Shown here: piece by piece, positions 1 to 14,909 of the stretch
Layout of the letters: each line of letters begins with the position of its first letter
How positions within the stretch are numbered: position 1 is the first letter of the stretch
NCBI RefSeq assembly: GCF_024970185.1
Contig: NZ_CP103965.1
Location: forward strand, 6,095,001-6,159,000
Direction of reading: 5' to 3'
Length of the DNA: 64,000 nt
Origin: Pseudomonas sp. N3-W
Lineage (GTDB): Bacteria > Pseudomonadota > Gammaproteobacteria > Pseudomonadales > Pseudomonadaceae
Notes under the pieces: generated by a model
Databases searched by the model: none
What the model saw: the letters and a program-made list of their open reading frames with translations, nothing else
Told to the model about the DNA's origin: nothing
Translations under genes and position numbers: made by a program

Positions 1-96
1 CTGACCATCATCGTGCTCGGCAGCGGCGTGTATTTGTGGGTAGTACGGCGCAAGGCCGCCAAACCTGTACTCACCAAGACGCAGGTGCCAGCATGA
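1..96 (+). CDS. C-terminal end of a PepSY-type inner-membrane protein (partial)
   Basis: Only the last 31 codons are inside the window. They encode a hydrophobic stretch with the motif GVYLWVVRRK followed by a short polar tail, which is how the last membrane helix of PepSY-associated transmembrane proteins usually ends. These proteins are often linked to iron or siderophore uptake. The stop codon overlaps the start of the next gene (ATGA), so the two are probably translated together. The family call rests on this short tail only, and another membrane protein cannot be excluded. Confidence 0.5.
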   Translation: MTIIVLGSGVYLWVVRRKAAKPVLTKTQVPA

Positions 97-990: not shown

Positions 991-1009
991 ACCGCCAACG
1001 CCCAAAACC

Positions 1010-1025
1010 CTAGCAGTTCTGCTAG
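1010..1025. promoter_or_regulatory. 16-bp palindrome upstream of mini-RHS gene 1
   Basis: CTAGCAGTTCTGCTAG is a perfect inverted repeat with 7-bp arms and a 2-bp centre. It starts 84 bp before the GTG start at 1094. Near-identical sites stand 83-85 bp before three of the four other mini-RHS genes. The constant distance suggests a regulator binding site or a fixed promoter element; the binding factor is unknown. Confidence 0.6.
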
Positions 1026-1093
1026 TAGGCAACGGCTCGCAAATCTCCGATGCTAAAGGCCTCGTTAATCGGACCTTGAACGGAGCTCAGCCA

Positions 1094-2140
1094 GTGCCTA
1101 CTTCCTCCCGCGAAACCGTATTGTGTCGCTACCGCTACGACGCCCTGGATCGCCAGCATAGCTGCTCACCCCCGCAGCAGCCGGACATCCAACGCTTTTA
1201 CTGCAAAAGCCGTTTATCCACCGAAATACAAGGCGCGGTACAGACCAGCTTCTTCCAGCATGAAGACCAGTTGCTCGCGCAACAGCAAGTCGGCGACGCC
1301 AGGCTCGACACCACGCTGCTGGCGACGGACCAGCAACGCTCAGTGCTGAACGCGCTCGACGCGAATCAGCCCAATCCCCTGGCCTACTCGCCCTATGGCC
1401 ATCGACCGCGGGGCAATGGCCTGCTCAGCCTGCTCGGGTTCAACGGTGAACGATCGGACCTGGTGACTGGGCACTATCATTTGGGTAATGGTTATCGGCA
1501 GTTCAACCCAGTGTTGATGCGCTTTAACAGCCCGGACAGTTTGAGTCCGTTTGGGGATGGCGGGTTGAATGCGTATGCGTATTGTGCGGGGGATCCGATT
1601 AACCGGAGAGACCCGACGGGACATATTCGAATCCCCGCGCCTATTTTTGATGATGTATTCGGAAATACCCAGTTACTCATGAGACGTTCCGGCCATCCCA
1701 AGATCCAATTCGACGCAACCATAAACAAAACAACCGAACTTTTCGGCGGATCGAAAAAATTTAAAATACTCGCCGACGCCAAAGGCGTAACCCCCGAAAG
1801 GCTTATGCTCGACACTTTACTTCCAGAAAAGCCGACCATTGCGTTCAGAGAAATCGATCCGCTAGAGGACAAACTGCTGTATCTGCAGCAGCAAGAATCA
1901 CGACTTAGGGTTCTTCTGAAAAACAAGAACGTCAGCGAGGAACTGTTATTCTCGGAAAACCCCTATATCAAATACCTTGACGAAACCGGCGTGCGAAACT
2001 TAAAACAAGACCTACTTACCAACACCAATGATTTAAGTAACGAGATTTCGTATTTGACAGGTCTGCGCGATGGGGCTGACACCCCATATTTCAATGTGAA
2101 ATTCTGGCAGGAGAGCGCCGCCAAATTAAGAACAGCATAA
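1094..2140 (+). CDS. Mini-RHS protein 1: RHS core plus unrecognised C-terminal domain
   Basis: The product has 348 residues. About 175 residues form a short RHS-repeat-associated core that ends in the standard signature NAYAYCAGDP...RDPTGH. The long series of YD repeats that forms the cage of full Rhs toxins is missing. The C-terminal 170 residues differ from all the paralogues here. They are AT-richer in DNA and hold a lysine/glutamate-rich region with predicted coiled coil (about residues 255-320). I do not recognise this domain. GTG 1094 was chosen because a GGAG sits 8 bp upstream, exactly as in the paralogue at 6073. No immunity gene is visible next to it. Confidence 0.8.
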   Translation: MPTSSRETVLCRYRYDALDRQHSCSPPQQPDIQRFYCKSRLSTEIQGAVQTSFFQHEDQLLAQQQVGDARLDTTLLATDQQRSVLNALDANQPNPLAYSPYGHRPRGNGLLSLLGFNGERSDLVTGHYHLGNGYRQFNPVLMRFNSPDSLSPFGDGGLNAYAYCAGDPINRRDPTGHIRIPAPIFDDVFGNTQLLMRRSGHPKIQFDATINKTTELFGGSKKFKILADAKGVTPERLMLDTLLPEKPTIAFREIDPLEDKLLYLQQQESRLRVLLKNKNVSEELLFSENPYIKYLDETGVRNLKQDLLTNTNDLSNEISYLTGLRDGADTPYFNVKFWQESAAKLRTA

Positions 2141-2145
2141 ACACC

Positions 2146-2307
2146 TCAAGGTGAGTGAAAACAGGTCGTACGGGGCAATGACGCAGTAGGAAAGCGCATA
2201 TAGAGGGCCGAATACTGAAGTCGACGTACAGGAAACAACCCGGCAATCAGCATCGCCAACTCAGTGCCCACCCGCTGATCCTCACGCAACCCCAACGACC
2301 GGCTCAT
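2146..2307 (-). CDS. Possible small or truncated gene coupled to creD, 53 aa
   Basis: An ATG overlaps the creD stop codon (ATGA) and opens a reading frame of 53 codons. The product begins MSRSLGLREDQRVGTELAML and has a short hydrophobic stretch. It ends 5 bp from the stop of mini-RHS gene 1, which is convergent. The coupling suggests real translation, and the abrupt end suggests the remains of a longer gene cut by insertion of the RHS cassette. I do not recognise the product. It could also be chance. Confidence 0.3.
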   Translation of the reverse strand: MSRSLGLREDQRVGTELAMLIAGLFPVRRLQYSALYMRFPTASLPRTTCFHSP

Positions 2308-3674
2308 TGCACCGCTCCCGTATCAAATTCCAGCGGCTTGGCCGCCTTCTGCCCAATGCCATACCAATCCAGCCTGCGAGTCAGCACCATAAACACACCC
2401 AGCACCCCGAACAGCAGCAACGAGCCCATCAACAACGCATAATCCTCTGCACTCAACAAGCCGTAGAGCAGGCCATACAACGCTGCCAGCCCCGCCGAAA
2501 AGCTCAAGCCATGACGCACGCTGCGCAGTACGTGGCAGACATAGAACCCGATCAACAACACACACCCACTGGCTGACAGCAGATACGCCAGGGCGAAGCC
2601 GATGTGTTCGGACAGCGACAGCAGCAACAGATAGAAGAACGCCAGGGCCACGCCCACCAAGGCGTATTGCACCGGGTGCACCGCCAGGCTTTTCAGTACT
2701 TCGAAGAGAAAGAAACCGGCGAACGTCAGGACGATGAACAACAGCGCATATTTGATCGCCCGGTCGCTTTTCAGGTATTGATCCACCGGGTCAATGAAGC
2801 TAACGCCGAAGCTGCGGCCATTGAACGCCTCGCAACCGCCACCGGACACACAGCTGCTCAGCGCTTCTTGCAGGTTGGTGGAGAAGAATGAGGTCTGCCA
2901 GTTGGCGCTAAACCCCTTTTCAGTGATTTCACGCTGGGCCGGCAGGTAGTTGCCAATGAAGCTGGGGTGCGGCCAGTTGGCGCTCAGCGAGACGTTGCTG
3001 GTCTTGCCCACCGGCAGCACCTGCAACTGACCGGTGCCTTGCAGGGTCAGATTGAAAGCGAAGTTCAATTCAGTGGCGTGAGTGGTGTCCAGCGCCGGCA
3101 ACGTGACGTGCACGCCCTCGCCCAGCAAGCCCACCTGGGTACCCGGCACGAAGTCGAGCTGCTGACCATCGAGCTCCAGCTTCAACGCATTTTCGATGCC
3201 GCGAATATCGCTGATGCCCACCGCCAGAAACGGCTGATCAAACTGATAGTCAGCGAAGTTTTCCTTGATGCCCAACTGCTCCGGCAACGAAAAATGCCCG
3301 CTGATTCGATTGTCCGCGTGAAACAGCCGCGCCTCGTAAATGCCACGCGAGCGCAGCTCGGTCTTCACCTCGCCGTCGAGTTCGAAACGTTCGGGCAGAA
3401 AATACAATCGCCCGCGCTCTTCGCCGGTTTCCTGATAACGCTCGTTGGTTTTCTCGTTGAGCTTCCAGGTGCGCACCACCTTGCGATACGGCACCACCAT
3501 CAGCGGCCCGCTGAGTTGCTGGCTGAAGCTGGAACTGCGGGCGATGTCTTCGAGCACGCCGTCGCGCCGCTGCTGACGGTCCTGGATCATGCCGTTGATC
3601 ATCAGCAACGGGATCAGCAGTAGCAGAATCAATAGGGCAATCGCCCCGAGTTTTAGGGTCAGGCTGCGGTTCAT
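2304..3674 (-). CDS. creD: Inner-membrane protein CreD
   Basis: CreD is the inner-membrane effector of the CreBC regulon; in Pseudomonas it is induced with the response to beta-lactams and penicillin-binding protein inhibition. The 456-residue product has an N-terminal membrane helix, a large periplasmic domain (about residues 40-310) that contains GPLMVVPY, and a C-terminal block of several membrane helices. These features and the length fit the CreD family. The start at 3674 has a GGGAG site 7-8 bp upstream. An in-frame extension to 3890 would add residues with no membrane signal. It is the last clear gene of creB-creC-creD. Confidence 0.9.
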   Translation of the reverse strand: MNRSLTLKLGAIALLILLLLIPLLMINGMIQDRQQRRDGVLEDIARSSSFSQQLSGPLMVVPYRKVVRTWKLNEKTNERYQETGEERGRLYFLPERFELDGEVKTELRSRGIYEARLFHADNRISGHFSLPEQLGIKENFADYQFDQPFLAVGISDIRGIENALKLELDGQQLDFVPGTQVGLLGEGVHVTLPALDTTHATELNFAFNLTLQGTGQLQVLPVGKTSNVSLSANWPHPSFIGNYLPAQREITEKGFSANWQTSFFSTNLQEALSSCVSGGGCEAFNGRSFGVSFIDPVDQYLKSDRAIKYALLFIVLTFAGFFLFEVLKSLAVHPVQYALVGVALAFFYLLLLSLSEHIGFALAYLLSASGCVLLIGFYVCHVLRSVRHGLSFSAGLAALYGLLYGLLSAEDYALLMGSLLLFGVLGVFMVLTRRLDWYGIGQKAAKPLEFDTGAVQ

Positions 3675-3789
3675 GGGGTTTCTCCCTGTTCGAATGGGGG
3701 AGAGTTTGAAAGGTGTGTGTGGGAGATCTGTGGCGCGAATGTGGGATTTGTGTGGAGTCTGCGCGAGCCCCTTCGCGAGCAGGTCGGTC

Positions 3790-5208
3790 CTAAGGCAGGC
3801 GCAACCTGACCTGCACCCCACCCTCGACATTGCCAATGCGAAACTCACCCTTATGCAGCTTGACCACTTCCTCGACAAAATTGAGCCCAAGCCCGGTACT
3901 CTTACGCCCGCTGTCCGGACGCGCCAATGAGTAAAAGCGCTCGCTCAAGCGCGGCAACGCATAATCAGGAATCGCCTCAGCCTGGTTGAACAACGTGAAC
4001 TCAACCTGCTCCCCCACCCGCTCGGCACTGAAACGCAGCAGCCCGCCAACCGGGGTAAAGTCCAAGGCATTCTCAAGCAGATTACCCAGTGCCTGACGTA
4101 GCAGAAACGGCTCGCCCAGCACCTCCAGGTCATCTGGAATCAGCAGCTCAACCCGCAACTGCCTGCCTTCAATCCGCGCCACCTGGCCATCCAGCAAGTT
4201 GTCGACCAAGGCTGCCAATGGCACGGTTACACGCGCCTCCAGCCCTTGCCGTTGCTCGACTTGCGCCAGATTCAGCAACCGCTCGATCAACTGCTGCATC
4301 CGCGCGCTTTCACTGTCGATATTGCTGACAAACCGCTGGCGTTGCGCCAACGGCATATCGCTTTCCAGTAACTCCGCGGCACCGCGAATCGCCGCCAGCG
4401 GGCTTTTCAGTTCGTGGGTCAGGGTATGGACGTAGCGCTCGACATAGGCCTTGCCTTCCAGCTGAGTACGCATCTGCTCCACCGCCGTGGCCAGTTGCTC
4501 CAGTTCGCCGCCGCGATAGTGCGGCACCTCGATCTTGCGGCCTTCGCTGACGGCCTGGGCGTACACCGTCAACCGTCGCAGTGCCGCGCTCAGCCACCAG
4601 GACAACAGCGCGCCGAACAGCAGGCCGAGGCCGATCAACCCGGCACCATAAATCAGCAATCGTCGCTCGGTGCGATCGATATAAGGCTGCAACGAGCTGT
4701 TGGGTTTCGCCACGGTGACAACGCCGATGATCTGACCGTTGTCACGAATCGGCGCGCCGACGTGCATCACCGAAGAGTTCGCATCGTTCGGGTCGCTGCG
4801 GGTGGAACGCGCACCGTATTCGCCCAGCAGGGTCAGATAAACGTCGTTCCAGCGCGAGTAGTCCTGCCCCACCGCCTCGCCACTGGAGTCCAGCACCACG
4901 ATGCCCTTGGCGTCGGTAACGTAAATACGGTGGTTGACCTGGTTCTTCGGCAAGCCCCAGATAGTGGCGTTCGGTTGCCGCTCGCCATAGGCCTTGAGCA
5001 GTTGCGGCCAGTGATTCTGGTTAAGGGTGCCGGTCTTGAAATCGTCGCGCAGAATCTCGGCCATCAGGTTGGCCGTATCCACAAGCGTTTCTTCGGTGGA
5101 CTGGCGCACGCCGGGGCGGATTTCCTCCATCACGGTGCTGAGCACGAAGTAACCGGTCAGGCCGATGAACAGCGCATAGACCAGAAAGATGCGGATCCCC
5201 AATGGCAT
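3790..5208 (-). CDS. creC: Two-component sensor histidine kinase CreC
   Basis: The 472-residue membrane kinase has a first transmembrane helix at about residues 7-27, a periplasmic sensor region, a second helix near residue 185, a HAMP linker, the dimerisation box THELKSPLAAIRG with the phospho-accepting histidine, and an ATPase domain with the N box (NLLENALDF) and GLGLNFV. It phosphorylates CreB. Its start overlaps the creB stop (ATGA), so the two are translationally coupled. CreC controls genes for carbon metabolism and, in pseudomonads, beta-lactam response and biofilm traits. Confidence 0.92.
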   Translation of the reverse strand: MPLGIRIFLVYALFIGLTGYFVLSTVMEEIRPGVRQSTEETLVDTANLMAEILRDDFKTGTLNQNHWPQLLKAYGERQPNATIWGLPKNQVNHRIYVTDAKGIVVLDSSGEAVGQDYSRWNDVYLTLLGEYGARSTRSDPNDANSSVMHVGAPIRDNGQIIGVVTVAKPNSSLQPYIDRTERRLLIYGAGLIGLGLLFGALLSWWLSAALRRLTVYAQAVSEGRKIEVPHYRGGELEQLATAVEQMRTQLEGKAYVERYVHTLTHELKSPLAAIRGAAELLESDMPLAQRQRFVSNIDSESARMQQLIERLLNLAQVEQRQGLEARVTVPLAALVDNLLDGQVARIEGRQLRVELLIPDDLEVLGEPFLLRQALGNLLENALDFTPVGGLLRFSAERVGEQVEFTLFNQAEAIPDYALPRLSERFYSLARPDSGRKSTGLGLNFVEEVVKLHKGEFRIGNVEGGVQVRLRLP

Positions 5209-5891
5209 CAGCTGTGCCTCGGGCTGTAGCTGTAGCCAATGCCGCGATGAGTCTGGATCGGTTCGGCGCCGGTGCTCACCAGCCGCAGCTTGGCGCGCAC
5301 GCTCTTGATATGGCTGTCGATACTGCGCTCATAACCGGCATCAGCAGCGATGCCCAGCGCATCGAGCAATTGTTCTCGGCTGAACACCCGTTCGGGTTGT
5401 TCCAGCAGGCATTGCAGCAGACGGAACTCGTGGCGGGTCAACGTCAGCACCTGGCCGCGATAGCTGATCTGCACCCGTTCGATGTCGATACGAAACATCG
5501 CCGAAGGAACATCTGCCACCGTCACTCGCGGTGCCATGCGTTTGAGAATCGCCCGGACCCGCGCCGCCACTTCTCGCGGGCTGAACGGCTTGACCACGTA
5601 ATCGTCGGCACCAATCTCCAGGCCCACCACGCGGTCGATCTCGCCATCACGGGCACTGAGGAAAATCACCGGCACCTCGCTGAAACGCCGCAGTTGCTTG
5701 CAGGTTTCAAAGCCGCTGATGTCCGGCAGGCCGATGTCGAGAATGATCAGGTCAGCCGGCGTCTGCCGCTGATGCTCAAGCGCCACCGCGCCGAGGCTCA
5801 CCCAGGACGTGGTAAAGCCTTCGCCCTGCAAGGCGAAAATCAGGGTGTCGGCAATCGCCGCTTCGTCTTCGACAATCAGAATATGAGGCAT
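5208..5891 (-). CDS. creB: Two-component response regulator CreB
   Basis: This is a 227-residue OmpR/PhoB-type regulator. The receiver domain shows the acidic pocket (VEDE), the phospho-acceptor in ILDIGLPD and the conserved lysine in VKPFSPRE. The C-terminal half is a winged-helix DNA-binding domain ending with RGIGYSY. It is the first gene of creB-creC-creD. I looked for the TTCAC direct repeat recognised by E. coli CreB in front of creB and creD and saw no convincing copy. Confidence 0.92.
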   Translation of the reverse strand: MPHILIVEDEAAIADTLIFALQGEGFTTSWVSLGAVALEHQRQTPADLIILDIGLPDISGFETCKQLRRFSEVPVIFLSARDGEIDRVVGLEIGADDYVVKPFSPREVAARVRAILKRMAPRVTVADVPSAMFRIDIERVQISYRGQVLTLTRHEFRLLQCLLEQPERVFSREQLLDALGIAADAGYERSIDSHIKSVRAKLRLVSTGAEPIQTHRGIGYSYSPRHS

Positions 5892-5989
5892 GACGTCCGA
5901 GCCCGGCAGTTAAGTGGGGCGAACGGTGAACCAAGGGGCAATCGCCGTCAATCGCAGGGTATGCAAATTGGCGGCGCGGTCTGTAATCC

Positions 5990-6005
5990 CTAGCAGTTCT
6001 GATAG
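5990..6005. promoter_or_regulatory. 16-bp near-palindrome upstream of mini-RHS gene 2
   Basis: CTAGCAGTTCTGATAG differs at one position from the perfect palindrome at 1010 and starts 83 bp before the start codon at 6073. The following bases TAGGCAACGGCT are also shared with the copy at 1010. Confidence 0.6.
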
Positions 6006-6072
6006 TAGGCAACGGCTGAAAAAGCTCGGATGCTGGAGGTCCGTCTTTTTGGACGTGCACGGAGCTATGTCA

Positions 6073-7158
6073 ATGCCTGACTCACCTCGCGAAACCATAC
6101 TGTGCCGCTACCGCTACGACCCGCTGGATCGCCTGGCCGACTGCGAGCCATCCGCGCAGGCCGACATCCAACGCTTTTACTGCAAAAGCCGCCTGGCCAC
6201 TGAAGTACAAGGCGCGGTGCAGACCAGCGTCTTTCAACATGAAGACCAGTTGCTGGCGCAACGCCAGGCCCAAAGCGGCAGGTTCGACACCACGCTGCTG
6301 GCGACCGATCAGCAGCGCTCGGTGTTGAATGCGCTCGACGCCACCCAGCCCAATCCCCTCGCCTATTCGCCCTATGGTCATCGGCCACAGGGGAATGGGT
6401 TGCTCAGTTTGCTGGGGTTCAACGGCGAACGGCCGGACCCGGTGACCGGGCATTATCATTTGGGCAATGGGTATCGGCAGTTCAATCCGGTGTTGATGCG
6501 GTTCAACAGCCCGGACAGTTGGAGCCCGTTTGGGGAGGGTGGGGTGAATGCGTATGCGTATTGTGGTGGGGATCCGGTCAATCGGAGTGATCCGAGTGGG
6601 CATCTTGGGCCAAAGCTTGGAATTGGAGTACTTCGGGCGGCAGCGCAAGCAACGAACATTGCGCCACCGCCAGTGCTGCCATCGTTAGAAGCTCAAATAC
6701 TGTCTCGTGTGTCAAAAACAGCCACTTCGTCATCAACAAACGTTACTTCGTTGGCCAGTCAGACACCGACTCTAACGAGAGTACCAACCGAGCAAGTCAA
6801 TTATCACGCCGTTCATTTGGAGATCGATTTACCCTCCCCCGTACCAGCCAGTCCCGGTCACCGTTTCCAGGATATTTCGAGATCTGCACGAACGCCAGAC
6901 ACTTTCCTGTCGGGCCAAACAATGTATGGCAATGGTGGAATGAACGGACCTCGCGTCAGGTTACTCCCCACCGAATCCACCCTTACGCGAGGGACTACCG
7001 ACCCCTCTCGAGGAACAATGAGCAGCGCTCCGCAACCACAACTTTCCCAAGCACAAATAGACGCAGAATGGGACCGGCTGTTAGCAGAGCAAGCAGCCTC
7101 GACAGGCTTTGGCGGTCAGGATGTCCTGTCAGGCAACATGGGTCGAATACGCCGCTAA
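6073..7158 (+). CDS. Mini-RHS protein 2: RHS core plus low-complexity C-terminus
   Basis: The product has 361 residues. The first 178 match the other mini-RHS cores, ending NAYAYCGGDP...SDPSGH. The C-terminal 180 residues are rich in Pro, Ser, Thr, Ala and Gln, with no hydrophobic core or recognisable catalytic motif, so this part looks disordered. ATG 6073 has GGAG 8 bp upstream; the in-frame ATG at 6067 is only 2 bp from that site and is less likely. It may be an inactive or degraded cassette, or one whose tail works in binding. No adjacent immunity gene is seen. Confidence 0.78.
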   Translation: MPDSPRETILCRYRYDPLDRLADCEPSAQADIQRFYCKSRLATEVQGAVQTSVFQHEDQLLAQRQAQSGRFDTTLLATDQQRSVLNALDATQPNPLAYSPYGHRPQGNGLLSLLGFNGERPDPVTGHYHLGNGYRQFNPVLMRFNSPDSWSPFGEGGVNAYAYCGGDPVNRSDPSGHLGPKLGIGVLRAAAQATNIAPPPVLPSLEAQILSRVSKTATSSSTNVTSLASQTPTLTRVPTEQVNYHAVHLEIDLPSPVPASPGHRFQDISRSARTPDTFLSGQTMYGNGGMNGPRVRLLPTESTLTRGTTDPSRGTMSSAPQPQLSQAQIDAEWDRLLAEQAASTGFGGQDVLSGNMGRIRR

Positions 7159-7184
7159 TGAACTGCTGTTTACTTCACAGCACC

Positions 7185-7688
7185 TCAACAATCCGGCTTG
7201 TCCGCCGTAAACCGTCGAGCCGGATTCACCGCCGCGCCAAATTCACGCAGCGCCTTGGCCCCAATCAGCAGCGGATAATTGAAGCTGCTGCGGTCCGTCA
7301 GGTTCACCTCAACCGTGCGCTTGACGTTGCCCAGGCACAGCTCCAGATCGACCACCGGGCGCTTGGCGACTTCGGTGCCGTTGTCATCGTCACCCTCGTC
7401 GGCGCGGCTCTTGATCTTGCTGATTCGTGCGACCTTGTGTTCATAGACCTTGTTGCCGCCGTCCTTGGTGCCGAGGCGGAAACGCACCCAGTCTTCGCCG
7501 TTGCGGCTAAAGGTTTCGATGTCCTTGGCTGACAGCGACGCAGTCAGGGCGCCGGTGTCCATCTTGGCCTTGAGCACTTCGCCGCCGATTTCCGGCAGCG
7601 CGATGTATTCGTAGCGCCCGTACAGGGTCGGCTCGGCGGCCAGGACCGGCAGGGCCACGAGGGAAAGCAGTGCAAGGAGGGATTTCAC
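7185..7688 (-). CDS. Secreted retropepsin-like protease homologue (RimK-linked zinc protease family)
   Basis: The 167-residue product starts with a signal peptide (KSLLALLSLVALPVLAAEP). The mature part has the motif KMDTGALTASL, the D-T-G triad of pepsin-like aspartic folds, and later PLLIGAKAL. This fits the family annotated as putative ATP-dependent zinc protease (PF05618), often found near RimK-type ligases. No rimK is in this window. The start is GTG 7688, preceded by AAGGA at 10 bp; no ATG fits the signal peptide. Confidence 0.78.
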   Translation of the reverse strand: MKSLLALLSLVALPVLAAEPTLYGRYEYIALPEIGGEVLKAKMDTGALTASLSAKDIETFSRNGEDWVRFRLGTKDGGNKVYEHKVARISKIKSRADEGDDDNGTEVAKRPVVDLELCLGNVKRTVEVNLTDRSSFNYPLLIGAKALREFGAAVNPARRFTADKPDC

Positions 7689-7791
7689 GTAGTCGGGTTC
7701 CTTGGGGAATGAGGGCGTCGAATGTGGGATTTTAGACCGCCAGTGATGAATTGGTTCGTTCGTCAGATCGCTTCGTCGGAACGCCGCCCGG

Positions 7792-7870
7792 GGCAAGCCC
7801 GCTCCCACAGGGAATTGGTGCTGGGCCCAACCCAAAACCCTGTGGGAGCGGGCTTGCCCGCGAAGGGGCC
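7792..7870. repeat. Inverted pair of REP elements
   Basis: Two facing copies of the REP unit (left GCAAGCCCGCTCCCACAG; right, its complement) are separated by about 30 bp. They lie between divergent genes. Such paired REPs form hairpins in RNA and are typical of P. fluorescens-type genomes. No RAYT transposase gene is in the window. Confidence 0.85.
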
Positions 7871-8010
7871 AGATCAATCACCACAGCAATCCAACTGATC
7901 ATTCCACTCAAGCATACCCCCGCAAAAGTGAAACATTCGTCACCGCCGATTTGGCCTGTCGCCCCAACCTGCTTATCATGTCGCGCCCAAAACGCTTGCA
8001 AGAGTCACTT

Positions 8011-8898
8011 ATGCGCCGCCTGCTCACCGGCTGTTTCGTTACGCTGCTGTTGTTACTCAACACCCTGGTGCTGTTCGGACCGCTGATGGTGTTTGCCCTG
8101 CTCAAGCTGATCCTGCCCGGTCGCCTGCGTGATTACGCCTCGTGGTCGGTGATGTGGATCGCCGAGACCTGGGCCGAAATCGACAAGCTGATCTTCCGCC
8201 AGTGCATCCCCACCCAATGGGACATCCGTGGCGGCGATGACTTGCGCGGCGACACGTCTTATCTGGTGATCAGCAACCACCAATCCTGGGTCGACATTCC
8301 CGCGCTGATCCAGACCCTGAATCGGCGCACGCCGTTCTTCAAATTCTTCCTCAAGAAAGAACTGATCTGGGTGCCGTTCCTGGGACTGGCCTGGTGGGCG
8401 CTGGATTACCCGTTCATGAAACGCTACACCAAGGCGTTCCTGGCGAAGAACCCGCAACTGCAAGGCAAGGATCTGGAGATCACCAAAGCCGCCTGCGAGC
8501 TGTTCAAGCGCCAGCCGGTGACCGTGGTCAATTACCTGGAAGGCACGCGCTTCACTGCCGCGAAAAGCGCACAGCAGCAGTCACCGTTCACCCACCTGCT
8601 CAAGCCCAAGGCGGGCGGCGTGGCGTTCGTGCTGGCGGCGATGGGCGAACAGCTGGACGCCATTCTCGATGTGACGGTGGTCTATCCGCAGCAGAACATT
8701 CCGGGGTTCTGGGACTTGATCTGCGGCAGCGTGCCGCGCGTGATCATCGACATTCAGACCCATGAACTGGACCCGGCGCTGTGGCAGGGCGATTACGAAA
8801 ACGATCCGGTGTTTCGCCAGAAAATCCAGAACTGGGTCAACCAGCTCTGGATCGACAAGGACCGGCGTATCGACGCCTTGCGCGCCGAACGCCGTTGA
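8011..8898 (+). CDS. PlsC-type acyltransferase (YihG-like)
   Basis: The 295-residue protein belongs to the lysophosphatidic acid acyltransferase superfamily. It has one N-terminal membrane helix (about residues 5-32), the catalytic NHxxxxD box (SNHQSWVD) and the substrate-binding EGTR box (LEGTRFT). It should transfer acyl groups to lysophospholipid at the inner membrane. Its length and TWAEIDKL segment resemble the E. coli YihG subgroup rather than core PlsC. ATG 8011 fits the membrane helix; no strong ribosome binding site is seen. Confidence 0.85.
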   Translation: MRRLLTGCFVTLLLLLNTLVLFGPLMVFALLKLILPGRLRDYASWSVMWIAETWAEIDKLIFRQCIPTQWDIRGGDDLRGDTSYLVISNHQSWVDIPALIQTLNRRTPFFKFFLKKELIWVPFLGLAWWALDYPFMKRYTKAFLAKNPQLQGKDLEITKAACELFKRQPVTVVNYLEGTRFTAAKSAQQQSPFTHLLKPKAGGVAFVLAAMGEQLDAILDVTVVYPQQNIPGFWDLICGSVPRVIIDIQTHELDPALWQGDYENDPVFRQKIQNWVNQLWIDKDRRIDALRAERR

Positions 8899-8913
8899 TC
8901 CGCCGGGGCCTGC

Positions 8914-9465
8914 TTAGCTGCCGGCACCCCAGATCCCGCCCAGGTTTTTCAGCAGCGAACCGCCGACGCCCTGGTCACCGAGGTACTTGAGGATCACCGG
9001 GGCAAACTGGCCGACCATGCTGTCGTTCATGCCCAGGGCGCCGAACGCACTGTTCAGGTCGCTGGTGTTCTTCACGTTACCCAGTGCGTTATCCAGACCC
9101 GCCGATTTGCCGGACGAACCGAGCATCCCGCTCAACGCGCCCATTTGCCCGCCACCGGACAACTTGTCCAGCCCCGGCACGCTCTTGGCCAGTTGCGAGT
9201 AGTCGGTGGAACTCAGTTGATTCTTCGCCAGCCCCAGCATCGCCCCGGTGCCGCCGACGGCTTGTTGCGGGGTGACGTTCAGTTGCGAAGTCAGCGCGCC
9301 GAGCAGCCCGGCTGTTTGTGGGGTTGGGGCGGCGGCAGTGGCGGCGTTGCCACCCTGCATGCTCGAAGCCGCTTTGGTCACGTCGTCCAGGCTGAAGCCT
9401 GCGAAGACCGGGCTGGCCGCCACGGACAACAGCGAAGCCAGTGCAAAACCGCGTGAAATCTTCAT
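8914..9465 (-). CDS. Secreted DUF2780 family protein
   Basis: The 183-residue product has a signal peptide ending near SPVFA. It is followed by a Gly/Ala/Ser-rich mature region with the [20 protein letters not shown] segment and a C-terminus with [15 protein letters not shown], both typical of DUF2780 (VcgC/VcgE-like) proteins. The function of the family is unknown. The start at 9465 has AGAGGA upstream. It is convergent with the acyltransferase gene and the two stops are only 15 bp apart. Confidence 0.82.
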
Positions 9466-9607
9466 CCAGACATCCTCTTGTGGCCATGAGCACCGCCCAT
9501 CGGTGGACGGCAAAAAACGTGTGCGTTCGACTGAGATCCCGGGGGATTGTTCCCAGGTCCAGCGACAACAGCCTTATGTGGCAAAGGGTTTCGGTAAAGA
9601 CGCCGTC

Positions 9608-9675
9608 CCTGTGGGAGCGAGCTTGCTCGCGATGGCGGTGGGTCAGCCTGAATCAATGTTGCTCCCACAGGGTTT
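9608..9675. repeat. REP element pair
   Basis: The unit CTGTGGGAGCGAGCTTGCTC is followed about 35 bp later by a short complementary fragment (TTGCTCCCACAGG). It lies in the intergenic region between the DUF2780 and fasciclin genes. Confidence 0.75.
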
Positions 9676-9704
9676 GTGGTGTTCACAAAGAATTCTCCCC
9701 GCAC

Positions 9705-9733
9705 TGCATCCAGTCTAGACCCGCCTGCGTATA
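9705..9733 (+). promoter_or_regulatory. Putative ECF-sigma promoter of the fasciclin gene
   Basis: TGCATCC (9705-9711), a 16-bp spacer and CGTATA (9728-9733) have the shape of an ECF-sigma promoter. The same arrangement, TGCAACC-N16-CGTCAT, precedes the sigma factor gene at 10475. The match between the two suggests that the sigma factor controls both. Confidence 0.5.
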
Positions 9734-9785
9734 TCAAGCACGGACAGACATTCCTGGCCGATTCCCCCCCACAAGGATCACCTCC

Positions 9786-10379
9786 ATGAAACGCACTTCG
9801 ATCAAAGCCCCGTTGATTGCCAGCCTGCTGACCCTGGCCCTTGGCGGCGGATTCGTGCTGAACACCGCACAAGCCGCCGACATGAGCCACGACACCGTGA
9901 TGGTCGGTGGCCAAGCCATGATGCCGGGCAAGGACATCGTCGATAACGCAGTCAATTCCGCCGACCACACCACACTGGTCGCCGCCGTGAAAGCCGCAGG
10001 GCTGGTCGACACGCTCAAAGGCAAAGGTCCGTTTACCGTGTTCGCGCCGGTCAACTCAGCCTTCGCCGCCCTGCCTGCCGGCACCGTCGACACCCTGCTC
10101 AAACCGGAGAACAAAGCCACCCTGACCAAGATCCTCACCTACCACGTGGTCGCCGGCAAACTCGACATGATGGCCCTCGCCGCGAAGATCAAGGCCGGTG
10201 GCGGCAAGGCCGAACTCACCACCGTCGCTGGCGGCAAACTCTGGGTCATGATGAACGGCCCACACAACATCGTGATCAAGGATGAAAAAGGCGACGTCGC
10301 CGACATCACCACCTACGACGTGTACCAGTCCAACGGCGTGATCCAGGTCATCGACAAAGTGCTGATGCCCAAAGGTTAA
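9786..10379 (+). CDS. Secreted fasciclin (FAS1) domain protein
   Basis: The 197-residue product has a signal peptide (about 1-34, ending AQAAD) and one FAS1 domain of about 135 residues. The family's H1 box is visible as [13 protein letters not shown], the conserved YH dipeptide as [10 protein letters not shown], and the H2-like end as [16 protein letters not shown]1 proteins act in adhesion or as stress-linked surface proteins. A good AAGGA precedes ATG 9786. It is followed by a terminator and then by an ECF sigma/anti-sigma pair, the usual partners of such proteins in proteobacteria. Confidence 0.88.
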
Positions 10380-10388
10380 GCAGTGCTT

Positions 10389-10420
10389 GCCGGCCCTGCG
10401 CATCGGGGTCGGCGTTTTTT
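10389..10420 (+). terminator. Intrinsic terminator after the fasciclin gene
   Basis: A GC-rich stem (GCCGGCCC paired with GGGGTCGGC, one wobble) is followed by six T residues, starting about 10 bp after the fasciclin stop codon. Confidence 0.75.
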
Positions 10421-10474
10421 CCGAGGTGACCACCCGTGAATGGAACAACGGCGCGCCGTGAACTAACCTCTGCC

Positions 10475-10503
10475 TGCAACCGGCATCGCTCGCAGCCCGT
10501 CAT
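10475..10503 (+). promoter_or_regulatory. Putative autoregulated ECF promoter of the sigma gene
   Basis: TGCAACC (10475-10481), a 16-bp spacer and CGTCAT (10498-10503) match the layout of the fasciclin promoter at 9705. Transcription would begin near 10510, which would exclude the upstream GTG at 10436 as the start codon of the sigma factor from this transcript. Confidence 0.45.
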
Positions 10504-10531
10504 TACTCCCTCGACCGTCCGGAGAACTGTT

Positions 10532-11080
10532 ATTTCCAGCACCGACGCCGATCAGCTCAGGCAGCTCCTGGCCCAGTGTTCACTGGGTGACCGCCGCGCA
10601 TTCGAGACGCTTTATCGCAGTGTCGGCCCGCGCCTGCATGGCGTGGCCCTGCGCTTCATGGGCCGTAGTGACCTGGCAGAAGAAGTGCTGCAGGAAAGCT
10701 TTGTGCGTATCTGGAACAACGCCTCGCGTTATGAAGCGCACTTGTCGGCACCGCTGACCTGGATGATCAACATCACCCGCCATCAGGCCATCGACCAGTT
10801 GCGCAAACACCGCGACCGCCCGCTGACCGATCTCGAAGAACAGGCACTGGAAGACCCAAGCCCCTCGGCCCACGAACAACTCACCAGTGCCCGCGAGGCC
10901 AGCGCCCTGAACCGGTGCCTGGAAAGTCTCGAAGGCATGCAACGCCAATCGATCACCGTGGCCTATTTTCAAGGGCTGTCGTGTGCCGAGTTGGCCGCAC
11001 ATCTGGCCGCGCCACTGGGCTCGGTCAAATCCTGGATTCGTCGCGGTATGGAGCGCCTGCGCAGGTGCCTTGAATCATGA
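10532..11080 (+). CDS. ECF RNA polymerase sigma factor
   Basis: The product is an ECF sigma factor of about 182 residues. Region 2 shows LYRSVGPRLHGVALRFMGR and the core-binding segment AEEVLQESFVRIWNNASRY; region 4 has the helix-turn-helix (GLSCAELAAHLAAPLGSVKS). Its usual partner, an anti-sigma gene, overlaps it at ATGA. The start is uncertain: GGAG at 10521-10524 lies 7 bp before an ATT codon at 10532, giving the normal family length. A GTG at 10436 would add 32 residues but lies upstream of the putative promoter. No ATG is available. It probably controls the fasciclin gene and itself. Confidence 0.88.
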   Translation: MSSTDADQLRQLLAQCSLGDRRAFETLYRSVGPRLHGVALRFMGRSDLAEEVLQESFVRIWNNASRYEAHLSAPLTWMINITRHQAIDQLRKHRDRPLTDLEEQALEDPSPSAHEQLTSAREASALNRCLESLEGMQRQSITVAYFQGLSCAELAAHLAAPLGSVKSWIRRGMERLRRCLES

Positions 11081-11751
11081 ACTATCAGACCCCGACCCTG
11101 CGCCGCGCCCTCGCCGCCGATTACGCCATTGGCCTGATGCCGGCTGCCGCTCGCCGACGTTTTGAACAGTTGCTGCTTGATGACGCCGCACTGCGCGCCG
11201 AACTGGCGCAATGGCAGGAGACCCTCGCCAGCCTGACGGATGCCCTGCCCGAGCAACCGGTGCCGGATCACGTGTGGCACGGGATTACCGCACGCATCGA
11301 TCCGCAAGTGCTGCATGTACCGGCCAAACGGCCATTCTGGAACTGGCTGCGGGTGACGGCGGCAGTGTGCTCGCTGGTGATCGCCGTGGCCCTGGGCGTG
11401 CTCTACAACCGCGACACTGCGCGGTACAGCGCCACACTGCTGACCGCCGATGCGCAGCCTGCGCTGAAGGTCGAAGCTCATGCCAATTACCTGAACGTCG
11501 AACCGCTGACCCTGGCCGCCGTCGAACCGGACCGCAGCCTGGAATTGTGGGCAATTGCGGCCGATGGCAAACCGGTTTCCCTCGGGGTGATTCCGGCGGG
11601 CGGCAAAGGCAAGGTCGAGCTGAATGAGGTGCAGAGAGCACTGATCGGCAAGCCGATTGCGCTGGCGGTCAGCCTTGAGCCCAAAGGCGGCTCGCCGACC
11701 GGGCAACCGACGGGGCCGGTGCTGTATCAAGGTGCGTTGGCAGGGCTCTGA
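11077..11751 (+). CDS. Membrane anti-sigma factor (RskA-like)
   Basis: The 224-residue protein has a cytoplasmic N-terminal anti-sigma domain (ADYAIGLMPAAARRRFEQLL), one transmembrane helix at about residues 90-108 and a periplasmic C-terminal domain with SLELWAI and LGVIPAGGKG, the pattern of the anti-sigma-K factor RskA family. It should hold the sigma factor at the membrane until a periplasmic signal releases it. ATGA overlap with the sigma gene gives translational coupling. No zinc-binding HxxxCxxC motif is present, which is normal for this subgroup. Confidence 0.87.
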   Translation: MNYQTPTLRRALAADYAIGLMPAAARRRFEQLLLDDAALRAELAQWQETLASLTDALPEQPVPDHVWHGITARIDPQVLHVPAKRPFWNWLRVTAAVCSLVIAVALGVLYNRDTARYSATLLTADAQPALKVEAHANYLNVEPLTLAAVEPDRSLELWAIAADGKPVSLGVIPAGGKGKVELNEVQRALIGKPIALAVSLEPKGGSPTGQPTGPVLYQGALAGL

Positions 11752-11754
11752 CAT

Positions 11755-12107
11755 CGGCCCCTGTAGGAGCTGCCGTGCTTTTGCGAGATGTGTTCCGGCA
11801 GGCTACACAACCTTGCGTCGTTGCCTACAACTGCGCCAGAATCCGCCGGCTTGTGCGCCTGGAGGGCCGTCGGTAACTTGGTTCGCGTCACTGATCCCCA
11901 GTGATCGGGTTTAGTAGCCCGACGTAACTAAGTCGCACAAGCGCTCATTCAGTCGGGTATCCCATCCCCGCACTTGATGGTAGCTGTGCGCAGGGCGCCT
12001 TCGGGTGCGCCGATTTCTTAGTTCGTCGGTCTACTAACCTGTGTACAGCTGCCTCCCTATCGTTTAGTAGCGAGCGGGTCGCAGCCTCATCAAGAGTGAA
12101 CTGAGAC
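11755..12107 (+). other. Non-coding leader region in front of the DUF6124 gene
   Basis: These 350 bp hold no convincing gene. Two structured blocks are visible. One is the small hairpin CGGG-tttagtag-CCCG near 11907. The other is a larger stem in which GGTAGCTGT (near 11979) can pair with ACAGCTGCC (near 12047) around an inner hairpin GGCGC...GCGCC. The last block ends about 50 bp before the DUF6124 start. A structured 5' leader or separate small RNA is possible. Confidence 0.35.
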
Positions 12108-12470
12108 ATGATCAAACCCACACCCAATCCCCCGAAGACCGAGCCGGTCCCCCACGATCCAGCGCTCGATCCAAAAAAGCTGAAAGAAGCCGCCAACCGC
12201 GCACTCAACTTCTACCTCAAGCCCGCAAGCCTCAAACCCCGCGCACCCAGCACCATCTTCCTCATCGCCCCCGACATCGACACCGAAACCCTGCTGGCCA
12301 ACGCCTGCGAGTCCCTGGCCTCGGCGAGCGTGATGATGAGCGATTTCGCCGGGTTTCTGGATGGCACACAGCGCAACACAATGCTGGGCATTCAACAGGT
12401 GATCATGCTCGGTGAGCTGGCGGTTAACCGGGCACTGGACAACCTTGAGCCGGCGGGTGCAACGACTTGA
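12108..12470 (+). CDS. DUF6124 family protein
   Basis: The 120-residue acidic/neutral cytoplasmic protein begins with a Pro-rich tail (MIKPTPNPPKTEPVPHDPAL), followed by a helical domain with LKEAANRALNFYL and DTETLLANACESLASASVM. This is the pattern of DUF6124, a family seen mostly in Pseudomonas and of unknown function. It has a long structured upstream region and stands directly before the run of three mini-RHS genes; a functional link is only a guess. Confidence 0.78.
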   Translation: MIKPTPNPPKTEPVPHDPALDPKKLKEAANRALNFYLKPASLKPRAPSTIFLIAPDIDTETLLANACESLASASVMMSDFAGFLDGTQRNTMLGIQQVIMLGELAVNRALDNLEPAGATT

Positions 12471-12506
12471 CTGGCAGACAAAATCCCACGAACAAAGAAT
12501 AACCAC

Positions 12507-12537
12507 TGTGGGAGCGAGCAGGCTCGCTCCCACATGG
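12507..12537. repeat. Compact REP palindrome
   Basis: CTGTGGGAGCGAGCAGGCTC continues into GCTCCCACA, forming one near-perfect hairpin just after the DUF6124 stop. It may also stop transcription before the mini-RHS promoter region. Confidence 0.75.
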
Positions 12538-12565
12538 ATTTGCTGTGCCTAAATGCGCTGCGACC

Positions 12566-12581
12566 CTATCAGTTCTGCTAG
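12566..12581. promoter_or_regulatory. 16-bp near-palindrome upstream of mini-RHS gene 3
   Basis: CTATCAGTTCTGCTAG has one mismatch to the perfect palindrome at 1010 and starts 85 bp before the ATG at 12651. About 85 bp of leader after it is almost identical to the leader of mini-RHS gene 5. Confidence 0.6.
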
Positions 12582-12650
12582 TACCCAACCTCGGCCAATT
12601 GCGCCACAGTAAACCCCTGAACCGACGCACCTTTCAGGGAGTCCAGCCCC

Positions 12651-13664
12651 ATGCAGCCCAACCGCGAAACCCTGCTGTGCCATTACCACTACGATCCACT
12701 GGATCGCCTGGTCGCCAGCACACTCGCAATGCAAGCTGACACCCAGCGTTTCTACCAGAAAGATCGCCTGACCACCGAGATCCAGGGCGCGGTGCAGCAT
12801 TCGATCATGCAGCACGATGATCATCTGCTGGCACAGCAACAGCAACAGACCGGCGCCGTGCAAACCCGCCTGCTCGCCACTGATCAGCAGCGTTCGGTGT
12901 TGAACGCCCTGGACGCAACTCAACCCCAACCCATTGCCTACACGCCTTACGGTCACCGCCCGCCGGAAAACGGCTTGCTAAGCCTGCTGGGCTTCAACGG
13001 CGAACGGCCCGATCCGCTGACCGGGCATTATTTGCTGGGTAATGGCTATCGGGCGTTCAACCCGGTATTGATGCGATTTAACAGCCCGGACAGTTGGAGT
13101 CCGTTTGGGGAGGGTGGGTTGAATGCATATGCGTATTGCCAGGGCGACCCACTAAACTTTTCAGACCCGACAGGACATATACGAGGACTAAAATCATTAC
13201 TGGGTATATTACCGAGCACAAAACGTGCAAGCGCACCAGCCACCGCTGTTATTGCAACACCTCCCGGCAAAATGAGGAATGTCACTAAACTTGCCGACAA
13301 TGCCTTCACTTTTGAATCAACGCACAAAGGTGGCTCGAGACTTACCATTGCTGCTCACGGTAGTGAAGCACACCCAGGAAAACTCGTCATCGGCAACGAA
13401 TATTGGGACGCACAAACCATAATAAAAAACATAGATCTCAACACTTATGATCGAGTGCGAATACTGGCCTGCAACTCTGATGAAATAGGTGCCGAGATAG
13501 CCCTGACAAAAGGAAAAGAAGTTAAGGCATATATCGGAAGAATCACCACAAATCTTTCAGACGAAAAAATGGCAAGGATCTATAGCTTTCATAATTCAAC
13601 AAAAATTGCAGACTTGGGAGTTATCAACCTGGTCATCCGCAAACAAATACATATGACCCGCTGA
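12651..13664 (+). CDS. Mini-RHS protein 3 with a caspase-like (clan CD) C-terminal domain
   Basis: The 337-residue product has the shared RHS core (1-176, ending NAYAYCQGDP...SDPTGH) and an AT-rich unique tail. The tail contains RLTIAAHGSE and, 38 residues later, VRILACNSDE followed by GAEIALTKGKEVKAYIG. Small-His-Gly after a hydrophobic strand, then hydrophobic-Ala-Cys, is the catalytic dyad pattern of caspase-like peptidases (clan CD, as in C80 or DUF4347-type domains): His236 and Cys274 here. I infer a protease toxin or processing domain; no search was run. No immunity gene is adjacent; mini-RHS gene 4 follows after 78 bp. Confidence 0.8.
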   Translation: MQPNRETLLCHYHYDPLDRLVASTLAMQADTQRFYQKDRLTTEIQGAVQHSIMQHDDHLLAQQQQQTGAVQTRLLATDQQRSVLNALDATQPQPIAYTPYGHRPPENGLLSLLGFNGERPDPLTGHYLLGNGYRAFNPVLMRFNSPDSWSPFGEGGLNAYAYCQGDPLNFSDPTGHIRGLKSLLGILPSTKRASAPATAVIATPPGKMRNVTKLADNAFTFESTHKGGSRLTIAAHGSEAHPGKLVIGNEYWDAQTIIKNIDLNTYDRVRILACNSDEIGAEIALTKGKEVKAYIGRITTNLSDEKMARIYSFHNSTKIADLGVINLVIRKQIHMTR

Positions 13665-13742
13665 AAGAACCTTTGGAGCACTCAACATTCAACTACCAAC
13701 CTGTAAAATTCAAGCTATAGAGGAAAGCCAAGGAGTAACACA

Positions 13743-14765
13743 ATGGACGCTAATCGTCTCGTAGTGCTCTGCCGCTACCACTACGACCCACTGGACCGCC
13801 TGGTCGCCAGCACACCTGCAGCGCAGCCCGGTACCCAGCGCTTCTACCAGAAAGATCACCTGGCCACCGAGATCCAGGGCGCGTTACAACACTCGATCAT
13901 GCAGCACGATGATCATCTGCTGGCACAGCAACAGTATCAAAGCGGCACCGTGCAAACCCGCCTGCTCGCCACTGATCAGCAGCGTTCGGTGTTGAACGCC
14001 CTGGACGCAACTCAACCCCAACCCATCGCCTACACGCCTTACGGCCACCGCCCACAGGAAAACGGCTTGCTCAGCCTGCCAGGCTTCAACGGCGAACGGC
14101 CGGATCCGCTGACCGGGCATTATTTACTGGGTAATGGCTACCGGGCGTTCAACCCGGTATTGATGCGGTTTAACAGCCCGGACAGTTGGAGTCCGTTTGG
14201 GGAGGGTGGCTTTAACACTTACGCCTACTGCGAAAATGATCCGATCAATTACGCAGATCCGTCTGGCAACCTAAAACTTTTCTTTTTCGCTCGCAGACTC
14301 TTCAACCAGCCAGATATATCCGGCGCCCTGTTTCGAGTTAAAAAAAGCCTGGGCAGTATAAAAAAAGCCAACGCAAAAATGAAAGCAATAGCAGCACCAA
14401 TAGCAGAGAGGACACCAAGAGAAACAGTACCGCCTAGTCCCCTAAGCACGCAGCAAACAAACGCCCCTGCGACAAACAAAACGCTCATCGAGGGGGCCAA
14501 CCCCCGTAAAGACCCAAGCACGCTTGCACATAAGGGCACCAATAAAGCATCTATCGCTAAAAGTAACGCCGCCCTACCCCCTATTCATAACTACGCTGCT
14601 CCTGGCGAATGGGACGTGCAACTCATCCCTGTCCCATTGCCGCCTACCATTAACAGGTCCCCTTTACGCCCTGTTCATAACTACGCCGCTTCTGACGAAT
14701 GGAACGTGCGTTTAACCCCTGACTCTATGCAACCTGTCGTTCGCTTAATCCGCATGAAGGATTAA
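13743..14765 (+). CDS. Mini-RHS protein 4: RHS core plus basic, duplicated tail
   Basis: The 340-residue product shares the core (1-177, ending NTYAYCENDP...ADPSGN). Its tail starts with a hydrophobic/basic stretch and a Lys-rich segment, continues through a Pro/Thr/Asn-rich linker and ends with two copies, 30 residues apart, of a motif P(I/V)HNYAAxxEWxVxL. No catalytic pattern is recognised. Unlike the other four genes it has no palindrome upstream, but a good AAGGAG 8 bp before ATG 13743; it may be co-transcribed with gene 3. Confidence 0.78.
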   Translation: MDANRLVVLCRYHYDPLDRLVASTPAAQPGTQRFYQKDHLATEIQGALQHSIMQHDDHLLAQQQYQSGTVQTRLLATDQQRSVLNALDATQPQPIAYTPYGHRPQENGLLSLPGFNGERPDPLTGHYLLGNGYRAFNPVLMRFNSPDSWSPFGEGGFNTYAYCENDPINYADPSGNLKLFFFARRLFNQPDISGALFRVKKSLGSIKKANAKMKAIAAPIAERTPRETVPPSPLSTQQTNAPATNKTLIEGANPRKDPSTLAHKGTNKASIAKSNAALPPIHNYAAPGEWDVQLIPVPLPPTINRSPLRPVHNYAASDEWNVRLTPDSMQPVVRLIRMKD

Positions 14766-14825
14766 TCACCCATTGTTGACGACACCTGTCGGTGCCGAGA
14801 ATGAATGCAGCCCGCAAATCAAACA

Positions 14826-14841
14826 CTATCAGTTCTGCTAG
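14826..14841. promoter_or_regulatory. 16-bp near-palindrome upstream of mini-RHS gene 5
   Basis: CTATCAGTTCTGCTAG is identical to the copy at 12566 and starts 84 bp before the ATG at 14910. Confidence 0.6.
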
Positions 14842-14909
14842 TACCCAACTCCAGCCAATTGCGCCACAGTAAACCCCGAACCGACGCACCTTTCAGGGAG
14901 TCCAGCCCC

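What the first reader, a model, noticed from the sequence alone, without database searches (positions are those of the whole stretch)
1010..14841. Shared 16-bp palindrome at a fixed distance before four mini-RHS genes
CTAGCAGTTCTGCTAG (perfect at 1010; one mismatch at 5990, 12566 and 14826) begins 84, 83, 85 and 84 bp before the chosen start codons. The sequences around it differ more than the motif does. Four widely spread cassettes, interrupted by unrelated genes, therefore seem to carry the same control element, as a mobile or regulated gene family would. The fifth gene (13743) lacks it and is probably read from the gene in front. The factor that binds is unknown.
Basis: seen in the sequence. 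Interest (0 to 1): 0.75.

Follow-up and report, generated by a model that had tools for sequence, protein, structure and literature searches.

The report
LuxR-type switch before mini-RHS genes
A repeated palindrome in front of scattered short RHS (toxin-like) genes of a soil Pseudomonas looks like the docking site of a quorum-sensing-type gene switch, and a small switch protein that has lost its signal sensor is the likely binder; none of this has been tested at the bench.

Summary
CTANCAGTTCTGNTAG occurs 10 times in this 6.67-Mb Pseudomonas genome, 8 times before a mini-RHS gene. It occurs in 12 of 149 sampled Pseudomonas genomes (74 sites); 63 of 74 have an RHS gene downstream. The sites form one promoter type: an 18-bp palindrome abutting a -35-like hexamer, 17 bp, a -10-like hexamer. 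CT-N12-AG plus this layout is that of a las/rhl (lux) box; the luxI promoter of the same genome is laid out alike. Best candidate binder: a 99-aa protein that is only a LuxR HTH domain (nearest solved structure LasR), encoded beside a large RHS gene. In 249 held-out genomes its close copy coincided with the motif in 20 (copy only 1, motif only 8), not corrected for ancestry. Its own gene carries a different lux-type box in the same layout (30 of 30 close relatives). Two genomes in which it is truncated or missing keep 8 and 11 boxes, so another LuxR-type binder is not excluded. No expression or binding data exist here. Verdict: a real regulon by sequence; new variant of a known kind.

The parts
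1009..1026 (+). lux-type box A, CCTAGCAGTTCTGCTAGT
1026..1031 (+). -35-like hexamer TAGGCA (17-bp spacer follows)
1049..1054 (+). -10-like hexamer GATGCT (weak, 3 of 6)
1094..2140 (+). mini-RHS gene A (GTG start, 348 aa), TIGR03696 RHS core
   Evidence: (scanned from residue 10)
5989..6006 (+). lux-type box B, CCTAGCAGTTCTGATAGT
6006..6011 (+). -35-like hexamer TAGGCA
6029..6034 (+). -10-like hexamer GATGCT (weak, 3 of 6)
6073..7158 (+). mini-RHS gene B (361 aa), TIGR03696
12565..12582 (+). lux-type box C, CCTATCAGTTCTGCTAGT
12582..12587 (+). -35-like hexamer TACCCA
12605..12610 (+). -10-like hexamer CACAGT (weak, 3 of 6)
12651..13664 (+). mini-RHS gene C (337 aa), TIGR03696
13743..14765 (+). 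mini-RHS gene D (340 aa), TIGR03696; no box; possibly co-transcribed with C
14825..14842 (+). lux-type box E, ACTATCAGTTCTGCTAGT
14842..14847 (+). -35-like hexamer TACCCA
14865..14870 (+). -10-like hexamer CACAGT (weak, 3 of 6)
14910..15959 (+). mini-RHS gene E (349 aa), TIGR03696

Best explanation
The palindrome is a lux-type operator. A dimer of a LuxR-family helix-turn-helix protein sits on it directly upstream of a poor -35 hexamer and recruits RNA polymerase (class II-like activation), so that the scattered mini-RHS genes of a genome, and a few large non-RHS genes, are switched on together. The most likely binder is the 99-aa HTH-only LuxR-type protein encoded outside the window at G000:C1:3698328-3698624, beside a response regulator and a 1593-aa RHS gene. 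Having no autoinducer-binding domain, it should act without ligand, its dose being set by its own lux-type promoter. Shown by sequence: motif, its place before RHS genes, promoter layout, LasR-like HTH, co-occurrence. Inferred: binding, activation, absence of ligand, identity of the binder.
For: Box: 74 sites in 12 of 149 genomes against 4 hits of the reversed control pattern; RHS downstream at 63 of 74. Features that the search did not select are conserved: C/A before and T/G after the 16-mer, T at +16, CA at +20..21, A at +40 and T at +44; mean match to TTGACA peaks at offset 16 (3.43 of 6) and to TATAAT at offset 39 (3.09 of 6), the other offsets tried giving 0.6-2.1. The two free half-site positions (3 and 12) are not complementary in 47 of 74 sites, as expected of a DNA dimer site rather than an RNA hairpin. 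CT(N12)AG is the motif of RhlR sites (PMC2018727, passages). Yardstick: the luxI gene (PF00765) of this genome has CTGTCAAGGGTGACAG, TAGTGC, 17 bp, TCTAAT. Candidate: GerE domain only; best PDB match LasR residues 171-239, E 2.6e-22; model with four confident HTH helices and a low-confidence residue 1-30 stretch (two of five models good). Co-occurrence at E <= 1.5e-25: first 149 genomes both 9, protein only 0, motif only 3, neither 137; held-out 249 genomes 20, 1, 8, 220. RHS gene within 6 kb in 35 of the 41 top-ranked named loci.
Against: G129 has the candidate gene truncated after residue 73 and G131 has no close copy in the genome nor at the expected locus, yet they keep 8 and 11 strict boxes (G131 holds masked stretches). 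Held-out motif genomes G172, G204, G223 (73% complete), G243, G306, G336, G354 and G383 also lack a close copy; G274 has the gene but no strict motif. The threshold was set after seeing the first sample, just between G079 (1.4e-25, motif) and G009 (4.3e-25, no motif). Fisher values ignore shared ancestry. A relative of the AHL-type solo LuxR L046 is in 11 of 12 motif genomes too (and 71 of 137 others). The -10 hexamers of the window sites match 3 of 6. Only 41 of 67 mini-RHS hits listed for 11 motif genomes have the strict motif 40-140 bp upstream. No expression or binding data.
Confidence: 0.6

Rival explanations
1. The box is a lux-type operator, but its main binder is a full-length AHL-type LuxR protein (the solo L046 or the luxI-linked L045), so that the RHS genes answer to a quorum or host signal directly.
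For: CT-N12-AG is the site class of such proteins; relatives of L046 (E <= 1e-40) are in 11 of 12 motif genomes, including G129 and G131, which lack an intact close HTH-only protein.
Against: They are also in 71 of 137 genomes without the motif, whereas the close HTH-only protein (E <= 1.5e-25) is in 0 of these 137 (G009 misses the threshold narrowly). The luxI box (CTGTCAAGGGTGACAG) has other arms than the RHS box. L045 itself was not traced in other genomes.
Confidence: 0.22
2. Another regulator binds the palindrome, for example the response regulator encoded next to the HTH-only gene.
For: The response regulator is adjacent in G000 and also has a GerE domain.
Against: A copy with >=50% identity was found in only 5 of the 12 motif genomes; the box has the layout of the genome's own luxI promoter.
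Confidence: 0.08
3. The motif is conserved only by recent duplication of cassettes (mobile or repeat element) and has no regulatory role.
For: Box, promoter and gene are duplicated together in places; five box-bearing tandem repeats of about 266 bp stand at G000:C1:1776183-1777261.
Against: 64 of 74 sites remain after removal of sites with 60% or more flank identity and show the same conserved -35, -10 and spacing columns; the box also precedes non-RHS genes; upstream flanks in the window are random.
Confidence: 0.04
4. The palindrome acts as an RNA hairpin (attenuator, terminator or leader element).
For: It is a near-perfect inverted repeat.
Against: Positions 3 and 12 do not covary as pairs (47 of 74 not complementary) and the -35/-10-like elements lie downstream of it, so it would not be transcribed from them.
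Confidence: 0.02

Closest known systems
las/rhl (lux) boxes of LasR/RhlR-type quorum-sensing regulators
   Same: CT-N12-AG dyad, position next to the -35 element, LasR-like HTH in the candidate binder.
   Different: Inner bases and target genes differ; the candidate binder has no autoinducer-binding domain; ligand control not shown.
LuxR solos of fluorescent pseudomonads (PMC8546723, passages)
   Same: LuxR-type regulator without a luxI gene beside it.
   Different: LuxR solos have an autoinducer-binding domain; this protein is HTH only. A term search of that text found no 'Rhs', 'toxin' or 'insecticidal'.
vqsR and other regulator genes under direct LasR control (PMC2018727, passages)
   Same: A regulator gene that is itself the direct target of a LuxR-type protein, i.e. 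a relay; here suggested by the lux-type box before the regulator gene.
   Different: Which protein binds the box of the regulator gene is not known here.
Orphan Rhs / polymorphic toxin genes; TcC-type proteins
   Same: RHS core followed by a variable C-terminal region.
   Different: 337-361 aa in the window; the TcC survey used 851-1050 aa as a criterion for orphan TcCs (PMC7861908, passages). Toxicity not tested.
GerE of Bacillus (HTH-only LuxR-family protein; role recalled)
   Same: Single LuxR-type HTH domain (chain 1fse listed).
   Different: Sequence much closer to LasR; different targets and organism.

Membership tests
las/rhl (lux) box | CT-N12-AG dyad | tested here: met
   motif as given in PMC2018727
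las/rhl (lux) box | placed at or next to the -35 element of its promoter | tested here: met
   offset peaks 16 and 39; by sequence only, start sites unmapped
las/rhl (lux) box | bound by a LuxR-family protein | not testable with these tools
   needs EMSA, DAP-seq or ChIP
LuxR-family (GerE) DNA-binding proteins | PF00196 HTH above the curated cut-off | tested here: met
   66.5 bits against 23.5
LuxR solo (quorum-sensing type) | autoinducer-binding domain PF03472 | tested here: not met
   99-aa protein has GerE only; N-terminal third modelled with low confidence
RHS-core proteins | TIGR03696 RHS-associated core | tested here: met
   five of five window genes above cut-off
TcC subunits | 851-1050 aa | tested here: not met
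   348, 361, 337, 340 and 349 aa; criterion from PMC7861908
Orphan Rhs toxins | toxic C-terminal domain with immunity gene | tested here: inconclusive
   no Pfam domain above cut-off in the five proteins; gene E has below-cut-off ADP-ribosyltransferase-like matches, E 0.049 and 0.092; immunity genes not tested

The most novel reading that the evidence does not exclude
A two-tier relay: a lux-type box of one kind (CTGTNATTTNTGACAG and variants) drives a sensorless, LasR-like activator, which then fires, through boxes of a second kind, a dispersed set of mini-RHS genes shared by many species of the fluorescens group. The relay would turn a graded signal (possibly AHL quorum sensing) into a joint release of many variable surface or toxin-like proteins, and operator and activator would have diverged together among lineages.
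Probability: 0.35. Interest if true: 0.78.

Novelty: new variant of a known kind. Interest (0 to 1): 0.62.

Why it matters
RHS genes of this sort are numerous (39 of 149 sampled genomes have four or more matches to the mini-RHS core half at E <= 1e-20, large RHS genes included), and no description of their control was seen in the paper listings searched. A single operator and a candidate regulator make the whole set testable at once: one deletion and one RNA-seq would say when and why these proteins are made. It would also show a LuxR-type activator without a sensor that serves as the switch of a variable gene family.

Tried and rejected
RNA-hairpin reading: rejected because the two free half-site positions do not covary and the promoter elements lie downstream. 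Mobile-element reading: rejected as sole cause. Response regulator as binder: only 5 of 12 motif genomes have a copy with >=50% identity. AHL-type solo LuxR L046: not specific, but kept as a rival. Whether quorum sensing controls the regulator gene could not be decided: its box has arms like those of the luxI box, but binding is untestable here. A search for further CTG-type boxes in the genome gave 38 matches against 18 in the reversed control, so only those with promoter layout deserve attention. In the own-genome stretches held (349,009 bases) dyads with promoter layout numbered 12 against 2 in the reversed sequence. I took the gene at G000:C1:427889 for a PI-PLC-type protein by eye; Pfam shows fn3/Ig repeats only, so that label is dropped. 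A first version of the small-GerE table (30, 7, 9, 103) counted G024, whose hit lies in a 607-aa frame; it was removed (29, 7, 10, 103).

Literature: in the listings seen, no paper links a LuxR-type box or an HTH-only LuxR protein to RHS genes in Pseudomonas. Searches: 0 papers; 2; 15 of 231 listed; 2; 2; 15 of 37 listed; 10 of 41 listed; 1; open-licence PMC papers only. The lux box + Rhs hit (PMC7048289, passages) concerns a 'type IV secretion protein Rhs' (COG3501) in a phz-box operon of P. chlororaphis, a different gene. One search found nothing; (8 of 128 listed) led to PMC2018727.
Full report
Check of the observation. The four palindromes are at the stated places, with 8 strand-wise matches at up to 3 mismatches against 0.28 expected and 0 of 100 shuffles as rich. 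Distances to the starts are 84, 83, 85 and 84 bp. All five genes match the RHS-associated core TIGR03696 above its cut-off. The window lies at G000:C1:6095001-6159000 of a one-contig genome of 6,674,931 bases.

The motif in the genome. CTANCAGTTCTGNTAG occurs 10 times. Eight sites precede mini-RHS genes by 71-87 bp; the other two precede a 603-aa protein without a Pfam or NCBIfam match (3711652) and a 1319-aa fn3-repeat protein (427889). The genome has 20 RHS-core matches, 10 of them in open frames of 341-425 aa: eight of these have the strict motif, one a variant (CTGACAGTTCTGCTAG, which also stands in tandem repeats of about 266 bp upstream of it), and one (window 13743) none.

The motif in the genus. 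In 149 Pseudomonas genomes 12 carry the motif, with 74 sites; the reversed pattern gives 4 hits. In 398 genomes, which include those 149, it is in 40, with 239 sites against 10 reversed hits. For all 74 sites of the first sample the DNA was fetched and the downstream stretch (up to 1.3 kb) compared with RHS proteins: 63 of 74 have an RHS gene on the same strand. Start codons, chosen by rule, were found for 61 of the 63; 48 of 61 lie 78-91 bp from the box start. The 11 others: five before large genes whose products share a K/R-E-S-H/Q-D/E stretch (grouping by eye), one before the fn3-repeat gene, one before a secreted-protein-like gene divergent from one of the five, two followed by GGTCGC with no RHS gene, one with promoter elements but no open frame of 100 aa near it, and one at a contig end. 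Seen from the genes, one search listed 67 mini-RHS hits for 11 of the 12 motif genomes that begin within residue 12 of the query and lie in frames of at most 577 aa (hits beginning later and large RHS genes were dropped; the list itself was cut at E about 8e-44, and G126 had no qualifying row): 41 of 67 have the strict motif 40-140 bp upstream. By eye, several of the rest carry diverged boxes, as do many mini-RHS genes of genomes without the strict motif, for example CCTAGCAGTTTTGCTAGG (G022, G026) and CCTAGCAGTTATGCGAGG (G094), while some show none.

Promoter anatomy. Over 74 sites, or 64 after removing sites with 60% or more flank identity, bases that the search did not fix are conserved: C/A before and T/G after the 16-mer (so the dyad is 18 bp), a hexamer T-A/T-G/C-n-C-A at +16..21, and nAnACT at +39..44. 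The mean match to TTGACA peaks at offset 16 (3.43 of 6) and to TATAAT at offset 39 (3.09 of 6), a spacer of 17 bp. In the window the -10 hexamers are weak (GATGCT, CACAGT), as would suit an activator-dependent promoter (inference). If transcription starts about 7 bp behind the -10, the box is centred near -43; the classical lux box is at -42.5 (recalled). In the same genome an autoinducer-synthase gene (PF00765) has CTGTCAAGGGTGACAG, TAGTGC, 17 bp, TCTAAT, the same layout. Positions 3 and 12 of the dyad vary independently (not complementary in 47 of 74), so the site is read as DNA.

Candidate binder. Next to a 1593-aa RHS gene at 3.70 Mb lies a 99-aa open frame with a GerE domain only. Its best match among solved structures is the DNA-binding domain of LasR (E 2.6e-22), then RhlR, SdiA-like proteins and QscR. 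The model has four confident HTH helices and low confidence in residues 1-30; three of the five models were poor throughout (mean pLDDT 51-54). In the first 149 genomes the nine best-scoring genomes are all motif genomes. With a threshold set after seeing these (E <= 1.5e-25, between G079 at 1.4e-25 and the motif-free G009 at 4.3e-25), the 249 further genomes gave both 20, protein only 1 (G274), motif only 8, neither 220 (one-sided Fisher p = 4e-22; first sample 9, 0, 3, 137, p = 2.8e-12). These values ignore ancestry, and one search scored 12 candidates per genome, up to 33. More widely, genomes with at least four mini-RHS-like matches and genomes with a small GerE-only relative (E <= 1e-14, frame under 200 aa) coincide in 29, with 7 and 10 having one only and 103 neither (sets read by hand).

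The regulator's own promoter. All 30 close relatives (E <= 1.5e-25) in the two genome samples have a CT-N12-AG box, often CTGTAATTTGTGACAG, 80-156 bp upstream of the position of the first residue, followed at the same offsets by GTTCCA-like and TATAA-type hexamers; 18 of the 30 have an RHS match within 1.5 kb. Among the 41 top-ranked named loci (L266-L306) 40 have the box and 35 an RHS gene within 6 kb; among the 39 lower-ranked, 6 and 4 (these sets overlap with the former; L309, 67% identical over 63 residues, has neither). This box differs from the RHS box and resembles the luxI box in its arms, which suggests a relay or autoregulation; neither is shown. Boxes of this class also stand before a TcdB-like gene (3316856) and other large genes of the own genome.

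Evidence against the named binder. G129 has the gene truncated after residue 73; G131 has no close copy in the genome nor at the aminotransferase locus where relatives have it; both keep 8 and 11 strict boxes. Recent loss, a copy hidden by masked or missing sequence, or a second LuxR-type binder would explain this. A relative of the AHL-type solo L046 is present in both, and in 11 of 12 motif genomes, but also in 71 of 137 others.

Judgement. That the palindrome is a lux-type operator I hold at about 0.85; that the HTH-only protein is its main binder at about 0.6. The parts are of known kinds; the combination of a sensorless LasR-like protein, its own lux-type promoter and a dispersed mini-RHS regulon was not seen in the paper listings searched.

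Noticed in passing
L010 1501-2579 (G000:C1:1776183-1777261): Five box-bearing copies (CTGACAGTTCTGCTAG) at spacings of 265-266 bp; the one at 1776183 stands directly before a mini-RHS gene.
   Followed up: partly
L045 2050-2094 (G000 near 6.643 Mb): A luxR/luxI-type pair (PF03472, PF00765) with box CTGTCAAGGGTGACAG and -10 TCTAAT in the same layout.
   Followed up: partly
L258, L259 (G000:C1:3316752 and 3316856): Two divergent lux-type boxes between a 1752-aa gene (VRP1 and Ig domains) and a 1550-aa SpvB/TcdB-domain gene.
   Followed up: partly
window 14910-15959: Mini-RHS gene E has below-cut-off matches to ADP-ribosyltransferase families (E 0.049 and 0.092).
   Followed up: no
L135 and L166: Two boxes in different genomes are followed by GGTCGCCCGCC instead of the usual -35 and have no RHS gene; perhaps another class of site.
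   Followed up: no
window 12507-12534: A hairpin with a 12-bp stem (GGGAGCGAGC...GCTCGCTCCC) just upstream of box C, terminator-like on the minus strand.
   Followed up: no
L107/L129 (G129): The HTH-only regulator gene is truncated after residue 73 while a lux-type box still stands before it.
   Followed up: partly
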